DNA of 36,224 nucleotides from Sulfurovum sp. GTDB taxonomy: Bacteria > Campylobacterota > Campylobacteria > Campylobacterales > Sulfurovaceae. A program made the position numbers and the translations under genes. The notes under the pieces were generated by a model that was not told where the DNA came from, did not search any database, and was given only the letters and a program-made list of their open reading frames with translations. Position 1 is the stretch's first letter. Each line of letters starts with the position of its first letter. The stretch is from NCBI GenBank assembly GCA_027062365.1, contig JAMOTK010000036.1:1-36224 (forward strand), written 5' to 3'. Positions 15,737-20,619 of this stretch are shown here, in pieces.

Positions 15737-16948
15737 ATGTCTTATTTTATTGTCTTTGTTGTCTTTTTTACTACACTTTTTGCAGGGGGTAGTAAAGAGG
15801 GATTAGCCTATATCAATAGCCTTCGTACACATGCAGGTCTTATCCCTTTTCATACAAACAGTATACTCACTAAAACAGCCAAATCGCATGCCAAATATCT
15901 CATACGAAATCAAAAAATGGGGCATTTCCAAAAAAAAGGCAAATCAGCGTATAGTGGCAAAACACCGAGCCAACGTGCTACCCATTTTGGCTATGCCTCT
16001 TCTATCGTTATGGAAAATATCTCTATCAATACAAGAAATCAAAAACATGCGATAGACAATCTTTTCTCAGCTATCTATCATCGTTTTACTTTTTTGAATC
16101 TAATAAGCAATCAAATAGGCATGAGTCACTCTATAACAAAGAAAAGAACAAAGGTGAAATCTGCCTATGTCTATAACTTAGGGTCTTCTAAACTCTCTAC
16201 ACTGTGTAAAAGAAACTTTACTTTAAAAAGTGGCAGATATTATATGAAAGATGTATGTAAAAAATCTAATAAAATGATACCTCTTTCCCTTTTTGATGCA
16301 AAAAAAGAAGAAATACAACGAAAAAATGCAAAAATAATCCTCTACCCCTATCAAGGACAAAAAAATATTTGGCCTGCGTTTTATAATGAATCACCAGACC
16401 CACTACCTCGATATAAAGTAAGTGGATTTCCTATCTCTGTACAGTGTAACCCTGCGTACTACAAAAAAGTACAGTTAAAATCATTTCGTTTATATGATGA
16501 AACCACAGGTAAAGAGATAAAAAAAACCAAGATACTCCATGCCAAAAATGACCCACATCATCTCATCAAAAAGCTAGATTTTGCCCTTATGCCTTTGGCT
16601 AGATTGTCATTTTCTCATACCTATAGAGCTGTGTTCAAAGCCAAAGCAGATGGGGTAAGTATCAAAAAAAGTTGGAAATTTAGCACCACTGTACCCAAAG
16701 AAAAACTCTATAGAATAGCTAAAAATCATAGCACAATCAACGTACGTTCAGGAAGTACAATTTTAGTCTATATCGTACCAAACAATCGCCGAGATATTAT
16801 CACATCATACAGCACCAAAGCAGGGCTAAAAGCCATTTTTATGGATAGAAATACACTCAAAATTACCATCCCAAAACAAAGATTAAGCAGTCATCTCAAA
16901 ATAACATTCTCAAATAAAAAGAGCTTGACTTTAAAGATAAATCCTTAG
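15737..16948 (+). CDS. CAP-domain secreted protein
   Basis: A 403-residue exported protein. Residues 1-17 form a signal peptide (FIVFVVFFTTLFA then GG). A CAP/SCP-PR1 domain spans about 20-150: YINSLRTHAGLIPF, then LTKTAKSHAKYL with the first histidine, GHFQKKG, the segment TPSQRATHFGY, and VMENIS with the acidic position. Bacterial CAP proteins are usually secreted and of unclear function. The region from about 190 to the end is basic and beta-rich, probably an Ig-like or wall/polymer-binding module, which I do not recognise. No good Shine-Dalgarno is seen before the ATG. Its stop overlaps the end of the convergent deaminase gene by 4 bases. Confidence 0.75.
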   Translation: MSYFIVFVVFFTTLFAGGSKEGLAYINSLRTHAGLIPFHTNSILTKTAKSHAKYLIRNQKMGHFQKKGKSAYSGKTPSQRATHFGYASSIVMENISINTRNQKHAIDNLFSAIYHRFTFLNLISNQIGMSHSITKKRTKVKSAYVYNLGSSKLSTLCKRNFTLKSGRYYMKDVCKKSNKMIPLSLFDAKKEEIQRKNAKIILYPYQGQKNIWPAFYNESPDPLPRYKVSGFPISVQCNPAYYKKVQLKSFRLYDETTGKEIKKTKILHAKNDPHHLIKKLDFALMPLARLSFSHTYRAVFKAKADGVSIKKSWKFSTTVPKEKLYRIAKNHSTINVRSGSTILVYIVPNNRRDIITSYSTKAGLKAIFMDRNTLKITIPKQRLSSHLKITFSNKKSLTLKINP

Positions 16949-18159
16949 AGGTATCTCTCTCCTTCTATATAAAGTTGTGTCACTTTTTTGCTATGAAGTA
17001 TCGTCCATAGGGCTAGTTCTTCTTCTCTCTTGGGTTTCTCATCTAGGGTAATGATGGCAAAATCAGCCAATCTTCCGACCTCTATCCTCCCACAGTTTAA
17101 GCCCAAAATATCTGAAGCTTTGCTCGTAATGGCATCGATGAGTTGGAGTGCTAGGGTATTCATTGGGATGTCATGGTGCATCATCAAGATGGCTCTAAGT
17201 TCATCTAAAATACTCAATGAATCATTGGAGCTTAGTCCATCGGTGGCAATAGTGTAGGGTAGGTTTAGATTTTCTATAGGCAACCTACCACAGCCCAAAT
17301 AACGGTTAGAACGTGGACAGTGTGCGATACTATGCCCCTTTTGGGCTAAGTAGTCTAATTCATCTTGTTTGGCTTGGGTACAGTGGGTAAAGTGGGTAGG
17401 GTGGGTATCAAAAGCATACATAAATTCTTGTATGGTACTAACAGGGGTAGAGGTGTTAAAGTATTTTTCAAAAAATCCTTTGAATGCTCCTTTGCCTTCT
17501 TCTAGCCAGATACGTTCTGCTTTAGATTCTAAAAAATGTGCCGATAGGGGAAGCTGGTGTTGTTTGGCTACAGTAACAGCCTTTTGCAAGATAATAGGGT
17601 GTACCGAATAGGGAGAATGTATCGCAATAGCAGGGCTAATTCGTGAAGATTTTTCACAAGACATAGAGGCTTTGACACGCTCCATAAAATCACCATAAAG
17701 CATATCGGCATACATTGCATTTGAGCCTATAAGCTCATTGAAAAACACCACTCGTTGAGGGGTCTTTTCGCAGACTTCAAGCTCATTACCAAAACTAGAA
17801 ATCGCTCCAAAAGTAGTCACACCTGATGCCATCATCTTTTGACATTGTTGCATCATTACAGCATTGTCACATTCTCCTACCAATGCTTCACGGTGTTGGA
17901 TAACTGAATCCAACCATGGCATAAAATCACCATATTTAAGAGATGTTTTATTGCTAGAAAATTCTAAATGTACATGGGTATTGATAAAGCCAGGATAGAG
18001 GATACTATGGTCTTGCATTTGGATAATCTCAGCATCGGGGTAGGTGTCTTTAAGTGTATCAACCTTGGCAATCTCTTCTATCTTATCACTAAAAGCCACA
18101 GCTTGATGATGGATATACCCATTGGGTGTATAAATATAATCTGCTTGTATGATTTTCAT
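16945..18159 (-). CDS. Aminofutalosine deaminase-like amidohydrolase (menaquinone biosynthesis)
   Basis: A metal-dependent amidohydrolase of 404 residues in the aminodeoxyfutalosine deaminase group of Campylobacterota, which converts 6-aminodeoxyfutalosine to deoxyfutalosine in the futalosine menaquinone route. Visible ligands and motifs are the N-terminal HxH (H62, H64 in NTHVHLEF), H208 (SAHFLES), H280 in HCPRSNRYLGCGRLP, and the catalytic aspartate D307 (ATDGLSSND). In Campylobacter jejuni the equivalent gene is next to aroQ and divergent from it. The same pair is split here by a two-gene ATPase/TOPRIM unit. The start is 11 bases after the TOPRIM stop, with AAAGGA beginning right at that stop codon, so it may be expressed as the last gene of that unit. 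Confidence 0.82.
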   Translation of the reverse strand: MKIIQADYIYTPNGYIHHQAVAFSDKIEEIAKVDTLKDTYPDAEIIQMQDHSILYPGFINTHVHLEFSSNKTSLKYGDFMPWLDSVIQHREALVGECDNAVMMQQCQKMMASGVTTFGAISSFGNELEVCEKTPQRVVFFNELIGSNAMYADMLYGDFMERVKASMSCEKSSRISPAIAIHSPYSVHPIILQKAVTVAKQHQLPLSAHFLESKAERIWLEEGKGAFKGFFEKYFNTSTPVSTIQEFMYAFDTHPTHFTHCTQAKQDELDYLAQKGHSIAHCPRSNRYLGCGRLPIENLNLPYTIATDGLSSNDSLSILDELRAILMMHHDIPMNTLALQLIDAITSKASDILGLNCGRIEVGRLADFAIITLDEKPKREEELALWTILHSKKVTQLYIEGERYL

Positions 18160-18170
18160 TTTTTATTCCT

Positions 18171-18812
18171 TTATATGTTTGTTGGCAAAGTATTGATGAA
18201 GATTTCAAAACTTTTATTTTTACTTATAATTTTTTTAAGTTCTTTTTGTTTTAGGAATTTTTGACTTAATTTATCATAGACTTTATAGGTTTTTTCTACT
18301 TTTATTTTTTTAGATTCTCTTTGCAATGCTTCAAAACATCCTGATACTTTTTCAGTTTTTAAATCTTTATAAAAAGGTAAAATCCAACATTCCAAAGAAT
18401 GCACAGAGATAGCAAAAATGATTTTTTCTTTATATTTTTGATAAAATATTTCTTTTTCATCAATCTTTTCTATCATTTTTTGCATTACACATTCAATAAT
18501 CTCTTCAATCGTTTGATTTTGATTGATAGAACAATTAAAACCCTCTGCAATATCCGTATCTATCTGAATAATAACATATTCGCTATTTAGCACATCATCT
18601 CTAAATCTTTTTTCACTAAGATATGAAAATATCGCTGTCCAACCTAAGCCAAAATCACTATGAGCTTGTTTCTTATCTGTTTCATCACGAGGAGGTTCAA
18701 GAGCAAAGATTTCTTCATCTAAATCCTCATATTCTTTATAAAAACCACATAAAATATTTTCAAGCACAATTTGGTCGGTAATCCCCTCTGTAATTAGTCC
18801 AAATTTTGCCAT
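18171..18812 (-). CDS. TOPRIM-like protein coupled to an AAA15 ATPase, candidate defence effector
   Basis: A 213-residue protein with the pattern of small TOPRIM nucleases. There is a glutamate after the first strand (GLITEGITDQIVLENIL, E9), a DxD after a hydrophobic strand (VIIQIDTD, D85 and D87), and SVHSLECWILPF (H138, E141, W143). The last resembles the ExW motif common in DUF4276-type and OLD-associated TOPRIM proteins. The C-terminal 60 residues are lysine-rich and probably helical. Its ATG shares one base with the ATPase stop (TAATG), so translation is coupled. Base composition looks more AT-rich than the flanking housekeeping genes, with many poly-A/T codons, suggesting transfer. I could not match it to a named family; nuclease activity is inference. 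Confidence 0.6.
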   Translation of the reverse strand: MAKFGLITEGITDQIVLENILCGFYKEYEDLDEEIFALEPPRDETDKKQAHSDFGLGWTAIFSYLSEKRFRDDVLNSEYVIIQIDTDIAEGFNCSINQNQTIEEIIECVMQKMIEKIDEKEIFYQKYKEKIIFAISVHSLECWILPFYKDLKTEKVSGCFEALQRESKKIKVEKTYKVYDKLSQKFLKQKELKKIISKNKSFEIFINTLPTNI

Positions 18813-20002
18813 TAAAAGCCTTTAGGTAATCCACCTAGATAACCTCTTAAAAATGCTTCTGAAAGTTTTAAAGGCTCATCATCTGAAGATTTTGGTTTAT
18901 TTTCAACGGTAATATTTTTAGTGCGTGTATAACCCTTTTTATTCCGAGAAACTACAAATAATTTCTGCTCTTCATCATTGAGATTAATCCCATCCAAAAT
19001 AGCAGGATTATGTGTGGTTAAAAATATCTGTTTGTCATATTTTTTGGATAATTCTGTCAAAATAGTCATAAGTTTGGTACATAGTTTTGGATTAAGTGAG
19101 GCATCTATATTGTCAATGGCAAAGGCTTTGGGGGTTTCTTTGGCTACGATAAGAGTGATATAAAAGAGAATAAATAAAAAGCCTTCATTTGCACTTCTTT
19201 GGGTAAATTCTTTATATAGGTATTTATCTTTTATCATGACTTTGTCTTCTTGGGGAGTATCCTTCGGAATATTTATATCTTCAAACCAATTAAAGAGTTG
19301 AAGAGATTCTATAATAGTTTCAATATAACTTTGATCTTCATACTCATTAATAACTGTTAGAAGTTTTAAGAGCCCTTCTCCATTAATCCCTAAAGGTTGG
19401 ATTTGTCCTTCTTTTTGGAAAATTCTTAAAGCTGTATTTTCTGGGGAATAAATAATAAAATTAAAAAAATCTATATTATTTTTCAATGTTTTAATTAGTA
19501 AATTTAATTTATCTTTTGTTTCTTTTTGAAATGTCTTTAAAACTTCTTTTTTCTGTGAAGAATTTAATGGTTTTTCAAGATCTTCTTCAATATTTTTTAT
19601 TAACATTAATTTTATGTGTTCATATAATTTTGATTCATCAGTTTCAAGATTATATATTTTTTCTTTTTCTACTTCAATCCAAGTTGTATATTCTTGATTA
19701 TCATGTTTAAAAATAAATTTTTTAAAAGTTTCTTTAAAGTTTAGATTAATTTCAATATTCTTATCCCTCTCCCCCTCATCAAAAGCACTTCTCATCAACT
19801 CAGGTTCAGGTACTCTCATCCCACGAGGAAATAAAAACTCATTAGATAACATATTAGACTCACTAGCCGAAACAAAAACCAAAGCTTCTAAAAGATTGCT
19901 TTTCCCACTTCCGTTTTCTCCGATAAAGACATTGATACGTCCAACTTCTATTTCTAGGTCATAGATGGACTTAAAATTTTGAATATGAATTTTTTCTATC
20001 AT
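18812..20002 (-). CDS. AAA15 family ATPase (OLD/RecF-like), candidate defence sensor
   Basis: A 396-residue ABC-type ATPase of the AAA15 group. It opens with IEKIHIQNFKSIYDLEIE, as OLD and RecF proteins do, then Walker A GENGSGKS (28-35). A long helical insertion follows (about 80-180, rich in K and E), which replaces the coiled coil. A signature-like RSANEG lies at 269-274, Walker B is AFAIDNID (D297), and the switch histidine is H331 (FLTTHNPAIL). The residue after the Walker B aspartate, normally catalytic Glu, is Asn298. There is no fused TOPRIM domain; the next gene supplies one. Related ATPases occur in PARIS, split OLD and other two-gene anti-phage systems. It could instead act in DNA repair. 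Confidence 0.8.
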   Translation of the reverse strand: MIEKIHIQNFKSIYDLEIEVGRINVFIGENGSGKSNLLEALVFVSASESNMLSNEFLFPRGMRVPEPELMRSAFDEGERDKNIEINLNFKETFKKFIFKHDNQEYTTWIEVEKEKIYNLETDESKLYEHIKLMLIKNIEEDLEKPLNSSQKKEVLKTFQKETKDKLNLLIKTLKNNIDFFNFIIYSPENTALRIFQKEGQIQPLGINGEGLLKLLTVINEYEDQSYIETIIESLQLFNWFEDINIPKDTPQEDKVMIKDKYLYKEFTQRSANEGFLFILFYITLIVAKETPKAFAIDNIDASLNPKLCTKLMTILTELSKKYDKQIFLTTHNPAILDGINLNDEEQKLFVVSRNKKGYTRTKNITVENKPKSSDDEPLKLSEAFLRGYLGGLPKGF

Positions 20003-20037
20003 TTTATACTACTTTTATTTATATTTTTATAAAGATA

Positions 20038-20060
20038 ATTATATCCTTAACTCATTGAGT
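20038..20060 (-). promoter_or_regulatory. Promoter and possible operator of the ATPase/TOPRIM unit
   Basis: TATAAT on the minus strand (20038-20043) lies about 36 bases before the ATPase ATG. Just upstream of it, at 20050-20060, is the perfect inverted repeat ACTCA-T-TGAGT, which would sit in the -10/-35 spacer. That position suits a repressor. The region 20003-20142 holds nothing else obvious except the aroQ leader on the other strand. Confidence 0.4.
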
Positions 20061-20142
20061 ATAAGATTTTATAAGAAAATTATATATATATTAAACCTAT
20101 TACGCTAAAATAATATCAAATTTATATATAATAAGGTATACA

Positions 20143-20619
20143 ATGAAAATAGTCGTTATCCAAGGTCCTAATCTTAATATGCTCGGTATTAGAGAACAAA
20201 ATGTTTATGGTCCAATGAAATTAGAAGATATTCATGTACAAATGAAGGGTTTTGCTGGGCAAAATAAGATTGATATTGAATTTTTTCAGTCCAATTTAGA
20301 GGGTGAAATTGTTGACCGTATTCAAGAATGTTTAGGCGATGCTGATGGAATTATCATCAATCCTGCTGCGTATACACATACCTCTATTGCGATTAGAGAT
20401 GCTATCTCTGCTGTACAAATACCTACACTTGAAGTACATCTTTCAAATATTTACCAAAGAGAAGAGTTTAGACATACATCATTAACAGCCCCTGTATGTG
20501 CAGGACAAATCACAGGTATGGGACCATTTGGGTATCACTTGGCTATGGTGGGTATGACTCAAATACTCAATGAAGTAAAAATGATGAAAGAGCAACAAGC
20601 CAAAGTACAACAAAAGTAA
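20143..20619 (+). CDS. aroQ: Type II 3-dehydroquinate dehydratase
   Basis: Converts 3-dehydroquinate to 3-dehydroshikimate in the shikimate pathway. [16 protein letters not shown] holds the catalytic tyrosine Y22 and the lid-loop arginine. [16 protein letters not shown] carries the substrate-binding Asn, and [15 protein letters not shown] holds the general-acid histidine H99 and R110. The protein has 158 residues, normal for the dodecameric type II enzyme. AAGG lies 6 bases before the ATG. A likely -10 is TAAAAT at 20106-20111. It leads a run with the M24 peptidase, folK and flhF, with 12, 6 and overlapping spacing, a gene order characteristic of Campylobacterota. Confidence 0.97.

What the first reader, a model, noticed from the sequence alone, without database searches (positions are those of the whole stretch)
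18171..20002. Two-gene AAA15 ATPase + small TOPRIM-like unit, a candidate anti-phage system
An OLD/RecF-like ATPase (Walker A, signature-like, Walker B, switch His all visible) is translationally coupled (TAATG) to a 213-residue protein with TOPRIM-type acidic residues (E9, D85, D87) and a HSLECW motif. The layout matches PARIS-like or split-OLD defence systems, but the effector is shorter than typical PARIS AriB and I cannot assign it to a named family. Island-like AT content and position between conserved genes support recent gain.
Basis: partly seen in the sequence, partly recalled or inferred. Interest (0 to 1): 0.75.

Follow-up and report, generated by a model that had tools for sequence, protein, structure and literature searches.

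The report
Two-gene ATPase–nuclease phage defence candidate
Two overlapping genes, recently inserted between two ordinary metabolic genes, encode an ATP-binding sensor and a small TOPRIM-type nuclease that probably stop phage infection by shutting the infected cell down; such pairs are already catalogued as an untested defence candidate (PDC-M31).

Summary
On the minus strand a 396-aa RecF/OLD-like ABC ATPase (18812-20002) overlaps by TAATG a 213-aa protein (18171-18812). Both match PADLOC's candidate system PDC-M31 (A 1.3e-75, B 1.4e-8). The small protein is predicted to fold as TOPRIM; OLD, PARIS and Gabija TOPRIM chains are among its best solved matches. Its conserved residues E9, D13, D85, D87, S139, E141 and K174 reproduce the order and local spacing of the OLD two-metal site. 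44 of 46 ATPase loci keep the partner downstream. The pair is rare (4 of 397 genomes sampled from the phylum, A and B in the same four), lies on plasmids, and on 4 of 13 viral contigs abuts a P2-type portal gene, at P2's old/tin defence hotspot. In 16 of 24 same-genus loci read, the flanking genes lie side by side without it. So it is a mobile ATPase–TOPRIM module, most likely abortive anti-phage defence; not PARIS by sequence. One unusual trait: the Walker-B catalytic glutamate is asparagine in 34 of 34 aligned ATPases, suggesting an ATP-held clamp. Defence, trigger and target are untested.

The parts
18812..20002 (-). ABC/RecF-OLD-like ATPase of 396 aa (PDC-M31A): Walker A 28-35, signature-like SANEG 271-275, Walker B D297 followed by N298, D-loop-position N304, switch H331
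   Evidence: PDC-M31A 253 bits, E 1.3e-75; model pLDDT 88.0
18171..18812 (-). small TOPRIM-type nuclease of 213 aa (PDC-M31B, DUF4276/RloB-like); proposed metal A ligands E9, D85, D87; metal B ligands D13, S139, E141; K174
   Evidence: (E 1.4e-8)
18810..18814 (-). TAATG stop-start overlap joining ATPase stop and nuclease start
18160..20142 (.). stretch between an amidohydrolase gene (16945-18159, -; aminofutalosine deaminase is my own reading of it) and aroQ (20143-20619, +); about 60-220 bp and without the module in 16 same-genus genomes

Best explanation
It is a mobile two-gene anti-phage module of the ABC-ATPase + TOPRIM-nuclease kind, a member of the candidate system PDC-M31. Proposed working: the ATPase forms an ATP-held oligomer that binds the TOPRIM protein and keeps it off (inferred, by analogy with PARIS and the NetFlax AAA/TOPRIM pairs); a phage-made signal changes the ATPase (inferred, trigger unknown); the nuclease is released or activated and cuts nucleic acid by two-metal-ion chemistry with E9/D85/D87 and D13/S139/E141 helped by K174 (conservation shown, chemistry inferred); translation or replication stops and the infection is aborted (inferred; RNA, perhaps tRNA as for AriB, thought somewhat likelier than DNA).
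For: Both proteins match the PDC-M31 models, and 37 of 37 aligned partners match PDC-M31B. 44 of 46 ATPase loci keep the partner directly downstream; the exceptions are a decayed copy (L018) and a partner split by a frameshift (L030); 7 of 7 more distant viral loci have it too. A and B occur in the same 4 of 397 genomes. TOPRIM fold: model pLDDT 88.9; best matches 2p62 Z 9.2, BpOLD 7.6, TsOLD 7.1, PARIS chain 8ux9_A 7.0, XccOLD 6.5, GajA 5.9. The pattern E-x3-D, DxD, SxE, K equals that published for TsOLD (E377/D381, D431/D433, S478/E480) and BpOLD (PMC7049728, passages read). Mobility: plasmids, a P2-type portal gene beside the pair on 4 of 13 viral contigs, an empty site in 16 of 24 same-genus loci, and neither flanking gene beside the pair in other copies of the phylum. 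Analogues: PARIS AriA holds AriB, a TOPRIM tRNase (PMC12409363, passages); NetFlax AAA antitoxins pair with TOPRIM_OLD/RloB-like toxins (PMC10440598, passages); F. nucleatum AbiLii is toxic in E. coli (PMC3985639, passages).
Against: No experiment on a PDC-M31 member was found (searches; open-licence papers only). The match of the window's own small protein to PDC-M31B and DUF4276 is weak (32.8 bits; 26.5 bits, below Pfam's cut-off of 30.2). Structural Z values of 5-9 are modest; Foldseek alone gave nothing at E <= 0.001. S139 is Ser in only 27 of 37 and D87 is Ala in three distant members. Few of 120 chromosomal neighbour ORFs of relatives gave defence hits. L. lactis AbiLii was not toxic in E. 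coli, and F. nucleatum AbiLi did not neutralise its AbiLii; in WonAB the ATPase is required for toxicity rather than being an antitoxin, so the sequester-and-release step may be wrong.
Confidence: 0.78

Rival explanations
1. An activated-complex nuclease: ATPase and TOPRIM protein act together as a split OLD enzyme on phage DNA, the ATPase being the sensing activator, with no sequestration and no tRNA cutting.
For: OLD proteins with the same ATPase and TOPRIM parts cut DNA in vitro (PMC7049728, passages); WonA is needed for WonB toxicity (PMC12137116, passages); the active-site pattern equals OLD; the ATPase fold matches SMC/Rad50 heads, Septu PtuA and retron PtuA.
Against: The two genes are separate in all 44 loci with a whole partner ORF; the closest split relative with known chemistry, AriB, cuts tRNA.
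Confidence: 0.3
2. A toxin-antitoxin-like addiction module that stabilises prophages, plasmids or the locus, with phage defence as a side effect or absent.
For: Carried on small mobilizable plasmids and viral contigs; the AAA/TOPRIM pairs of NetFlax were scored as toxin-antitoxin.
Against: Location beside the P2-type portal gene, in a region where defence systems collect. The two loss states seen (L018, L030) fit either reading.
Confidence: 0.15
3. A housekeeping DNA-repair or RNA-processing pair (RecF/RNase M5-like) unrelated to phage.
For: RecF/SMC family similarity; TOPRIM also occurs in primases, RecR and RNase M5 (general knowledge).
Against: 4 of 397 genomes sampled from the phylum; not found beside aroQ in 24 of 24 same-genus loci read; carried by plasmids and viral contigs; low GC.
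Confidence: 0.04

Closest known systems
PDC-M31 (PADLOC-DB candidate; PDC-x systems are called unpublished candidates from Payne et al. 2021 in PMC11811056, passages read)
   Same: Both genes match, in the same order and adjacent.
   Different: The window's small protein is a divergent member (32.8 bits); I found no function reported for the family.
PARIS (AriA/AriB)
   Same: ABC ATPase + separate TOPRIM protein; the model of B aligns to PARIS chain 8ux9_A, Z 7.0 over 160 residues (taken to be AriB because 8ux9_B is AriA).
   Different: No DUF4435/AriB match; B is 213 aa against 306 residues in 8ux9_A; ATPase of 396 aa against AriA chains of 464.
OLD nucleases (P2 OLD, TsOLD, BpOLD)
   Same: ABC ATPase and TOPRIM, same two-metal residue pattern; some relatives abut a P2-type portal gene, the region where P2 carries old and tin.
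   Different: Two separate genes; Asn after the Walker-B Asp.
AbiL (AbiLi/AbiLii) and NetFlax D29 with D44/M70 partners
   Same: AAA ATPase + RloB/TOPRIM_OLD toxin in one operon; 7 of 37 partners match AbiLii.
   Different: The window's own small protein does not match AbiLii at E <= 1.
Gabija (GajA/GajB)
   Same: The TOPRIM part of GajA is a structural match, Z 5.9.
   Different: No helicase gene beside it; GajA is a single protein.
WonAB of the V. cholerae WASA-1 prophage
   Same: Two-gene ABC ATPase + nuclease carried by a prophage, abortive, stops translation (PMC12137116, passages).
   Different: WonB is described there as a PD-(D/E)xK nuclease; its ATPase needs E300.

Membership tests
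PDC-M31 (PADLOC) | ATPase matches PDC-M31A better than other ATPase models | tested here: met
   253 bits, next best model 99.9 bits (25 of 112 rows shown)
PDC-M31 (PADLOC) | partner matches PDC-M31B and is adjacent | tested here: met
   1.4e-8 and 2.1e-7; overlap by TAATG. The cut-offs used by PADLOC itself were not shown by the tool
PARIS | partner has DUF4435 (AriB) | tested here: not met
   no DUF4435 or AriB among matches at E <= 1, nor in the family tables of the 37 members
PARIS | ATPase hexamer holding AriB, released by phage trigger proteins | not testable with these tools
   -
OLD | ATPase and TOPRIM in one polypeptide | tested here: not met
   two ORFs
OLD | two-metal TOPRIM residue set E/D, DxD, SxE, K/R | tested here: met
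   pattern compared with residues in PMC7049728; by order and local spacing, no residue-level superposition was made
DUF4276 (PF14103) | score above Pfam gathering cut-off | tested here: not met
   26.5 against 30.2 bits for the window protein; 25 of 37 members match at E <= 0.1
RloB (PF13707) | score above Pfam gathering cut-off | tested here: not met
   17.2 against 31.5 bits; 24 of 37 members match at E <= 0.1
AbiL | partner matches AbiLii | tested here: inconclusive
   7 of 37 members match (best 3.5e-4), the window's own does not at E <= 1
Gabija | UvrD-like GajB gene next to the nuclease | tested here: not met
   neighbours are an amidohydrolase and aroQ
any defence system | measured protection against phage | not testable with these tools
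   -

The most novel reading that the evidence does not exclude
PDC-M31 ATPases are natural non-hydrolysing or very slow ABC clamps. The residue at the Walker-B catalytic glutamate position is asparagine (N298, 34 of 34 aligned) and the D-loop position is Asn (N304, 33 of 34), a constitution like that of engineered EQ constructs of SMC proteins. ATP would lock the oligomer that holds the TOPRIM nuclease, and infection would be sensed as loss of the locked state (nucleotide depletion, or a phage protein prising it open), not by an ATPase cycle.
Probability: 0.25. Interest if true: 0.6.

Novelty: new member of a known kind. Interest (0 to 1): 0.4.

Why it matters
It places an uncharacterised candidate system next to PARIS, OLD and AbiL with a concrete active-site hypothesis and a clean history of gain at one locus within one bacterial genus (not named by the tools; the nearest named relatives are Sulfurovum and Sulfurimonas). 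The near-invariant Asn in the ATPase gives a directly testable contrast with WonAB and other ABC-type defence ATPases. Apart from that it looks like other ATPase + TOPRIM defence units.

Tried and rejected
PARIS membership was rejected on sequence (no DUF4435/AriB match), although the fold is alike. Gabija and single-gene OLD were rejected on gene layout. A core repair function was rejected on distribution. A defence-island argument was tried with 120 mechanically called neighbour ORFs (80 aa or more) of 25 loci: the table shows single hits each (Type III restriction and methylation, Type II methyltransferase, an RT-linked model, DolB, PDC-M37B, PDC-S31), and the Pfam families shown are mainly ordinary cellular ones (25 of 54 and 25 of 137 families shown). 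No control set was run, so I do not use it.

Terminal repeats or a target-site duplication around the insert were looked for and not recognised; terminator-like sites: none; promoter-like sites were fewer (9) than in shuffles (mean 15.2). The way of insertion is unknown.

A sequence search of the PDB with the small protein or its profile found no relative (one unrelated hit at E 1.2). Foldseek against viral models gave a weak RloB-like protein first (E 0.059, TM 0.50). AriA is not among the 50 rows shown for the ATPase model, which is no evidence either way. Paper searches for PDC-M31 and DUF4276 returned nothing.

The Asn at the Walker-B position was checked on other ATPases. Of the 12 among the 46 loci that were not in the alignment A4, 11 read DN by pattern and the decayed L018 reads DN in its translation. 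Of 7 more distant viral loci six read DN and one (L158) DS. Distant ATPases of other families mostly read DE or EE where a motif could be picked, but six (L048, L051, L052, L054, L058, L072) read EN, so the change is not unique to PDC-M31. The next acid D300 might replace the missing glutamate.

Full report
What is there. On the minus strand of the window lie two overlapping genes: an ATPase of 396 aa (18812-20002) and a protein of 213 aa (18171-18812), joined by TAATG. They sit between an amidohydrolase gene (16945-18159, -; Pfam Amidohydro_1; aminofutalosine deaminase is my own reading) and aroQ (20143-20619, +; DHquinase_II). The module has 27.7% GC, the rest of the window 36.5%; among 38 non-overlapping ORFs of 80 aa or more its genes rank lowest and third lowest.

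Identity. The ATPase matches Pfam AAA_21 (1.2e-22) and AAA_15 (5e-18) above their cut-offs and PADLOC PDC-M31A at 1.3e-75 with 253 bits, far above the next model at 99.9 bits. The small protein matches PDC-M31B at 1.4e-8 and DUF4276 at 8.8e-6, below the Pfam cut-off. 37 of 37 aligned partners match PDC-M31B; 7 match AbiLii; 8 match the best of the HEC-01B models. PDC-x systems are called unpublished candidates from Payne et al. 2021 (PMC11811056, passages read).

Conservation of the pair. From ATPase loci (window included) were examined: 44 have the partner directly downstream on the same strand, from a 161-base overlap to a 15-base gap in the ORFs as called from the first start codon. The family profile confirms the partner in these 44 (the window's own being a row of the profile); most of them were used to build it. 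In L015 the partner ORF contains a run of unknown letters. L018 is a decayed copy whose ATPase reading frame ends early and for which no partner was found; L030 has a partner split by a frameshift. Seven more distant viral loci, outside the 46, also have the partner. Across 397 genomes drawn from the phylum, the own genome included, the ATPase model finds 4 and the partner profile the same 4; 0 of 14 control genomes ring for the ATPase model. The ATPase tree groups five copies of the phylum including the window's (100/99), next to a gammaproteobacterial copy with weak support (81/80), while L002 of the same order lies in a far clade beside a viral contig, which points to more than one entry into the phylum.

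Fold and active site. AlphaFold2 on 37 family members gives mean pLDDT 88.9 and pTM 0.87. VIA-align 2 on Foldseek candidates ranks PH0156 (2p62, Z 9.2, 171 residues, 3.9 A), OLD C-terminal regions (6nk8 7.6; 6p74 7.1; 6njv 6.5), PARIS chain 8ux9_A (7.0, 160 residues, 4.2 A; taken to be AriB because chain B is AriA) and GajA (8tjy 5.9) on top; other folds such as an esterase and lumazine synthase begin at 5.5. Foldseek itself had no match at E <= 0.001, so the fold rests on this second look together with the motif pattern. In 37 members E9 and D85 are invariant, D13 is Asp in 36 (Glu in one), D87 in 34 (Ala in three distant members), E141 in 35 (Asp in two), K174 in 35, S139 in 27. The OLD work assigns metal A to E377, D431, D433 and metal B to D381, S478, E480 in TsOLD (BpOLD E400, D455, D457; E404, T506, E508), with R487 or K562 as helper (PMC7049728, passages read). 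The local spacing is the same: E-x3-D, D-x-D, S-x-E. Thus HSLECW carries the proposed metal B ligands. This mapping is by order and spacing; a residue-level superposition was not made.

ATPase. The model has pLDDT 88.0 and matches SMC, Rad50, retron PtuA and Septu PtuA heads at Z 18-20. In 34 aligned ATPases Walker A K34 is invariant; Walker B D297 is Asp in 32 and Glu in 2; the next residue, the catalytic Glu of ABC ATPases by general knowledge, is Asn in 34 of 34; N304 at the D-loop position is Asn in 33; H331 is His in 31. The 12 of the 46 loci outside this alignment also read Asn (11, L018); of 7 more distant viral loci six read Asn and one Ser. In the profile alignment retron Eco8 OLD reads E at this position and an SMC1 construct (6zz6) reads Q; that this Q is an engineered change is my recollection. 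WonA E300A, like other ATP-site changes, lost protection (PMC12137116, passages). Distant ATPases of other families mostly read DE or EE, six read EN.

Mobility and context. In 41 genomes of the genus (the window's own included), 39 have aroQ; 24 loci of the 38 others were fetched and read. In 16 the amidohydrolase gene abuts aroQ head to head (about 60-220 bp between them); in one (L110) another gene lies between; in seven no such gene lies within the stretch held; in none was the ATPase or the TOPRIM gene found (sequences). So the window carries a roughly 1.9-kb insertion. Relatives in the phylum (L002, L003, L007-L010, L031) have neither flanking gene beside the pair within the DNA held, which for some is only 1-2 kb. 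Plasmids: 7 records, 6 predicted mobilizable; four were opened and show a gene after the ATPase in the partner's place (annotated DUF4276 in one, hypothetical in three), among them 5.8-kb Paracoccus pMARC2 and Acinetobacter plasmids of 10 and 13 kb. Phage records: one distant match. Viral contigs: of 13 IMG/VR contigs with close ATPases (38% identity or more; two have identical proteins), four (L091, L094, L095, L096) carry the pair about 11-63 bp from a portal gene followed by terminase, scaffold, capsid and small terminase genes; the other nine show no portal gene like that of L094 in the DNA held. The P2 type rests on a gpP-like terminase domain and on the gene order, which I know from memory. 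L094 and L095 are near-copies, so there are about three independent cases. Rousset et al. describe the region between gpA and gpQ of P2-like phages as a hotspot of anti-phage systems that holds old and tin in P2 (PMC9122126, passages). The gpA side was not checked. Chromosomal neighbours give few defence hits.

Working. Shown: gene layout, coupling, conserved residues, predicted fold, patchy and mobile distribution. Inferred: nuclease chemistry, holding by the ATPase, a phage trigger, abortive outcome. Closest worked cases: PARIS, where AriA holds AriB, which on release cuts tRNA with a two-metal TOPRIM site (PMC12409363, passages); NetFlax AAA/TOPRIM pairs (PMC10440598, passages); AbiL, where F. 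nucleatum AbiLii was toxic, L. lactis AbiLii was not, and AbiLi did not neutralise (PMC3985639, passages); and WonAB, where the ATPase is needed for toxicity. I give about 0.78 to an anti-phage ATPase + TOPRIM module; within that, holding-and-release with RNA as target is only moderately favoured over a joint complex acting on DNA.

Verdict. A real, mobile member of a known but, as far as found, untested candidate system. New member of a known kind; interest 0.4, mainly for the active-site assignment and the Asn of the ATPase.

Noticed in passing
L110:514-1452 (genome G403) and L109:1-420 (G406): In two same-genus genomes another gene, probably a phosphoesterase by eye, lies beside aroQ on the amidohydrolase side, in L110 between the two genes, so this spacer may have taken up genes more than once.
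   Followed up: partly
L114:454-1422 (genome G408): A tyrosine recombinase of integron-integrase look (by eye) stands directly upstream of aroQ.
   Followed up: no
G000, contigs C22, C31, C63 and others: The genome holds 13 places, the window's ATPase among them, matching the generic AriA/AAA_21 model at E <= 1e-10, several clustered on C22 (100144-108553), C31 and C63; these may be further defence loci.
   Followed up: no
L168:1-6639: A viral contig starts with the TOPRIM gene, holds a P2-type portal gene about 4.7 kb away and also a short second piece of portal-like sequence at 1871-2011.
   Followed up: no
L026, L027, L034 partners: Three distant partners read DTA in place of DTD and Glu in place of S139, a possible variant active site.
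   Followed up: no
L025:12037-13005, L087:4803-5783, L092:3329-4297: In three loci (one Pseudomonas genome, two viral contigs) the pair lies next to the same opposite-strand gene, perhaps a phage baseplate protein by eye; no Pfam match at E <= 1e-5. A second recurrent prophage site.
   Followed up: partly
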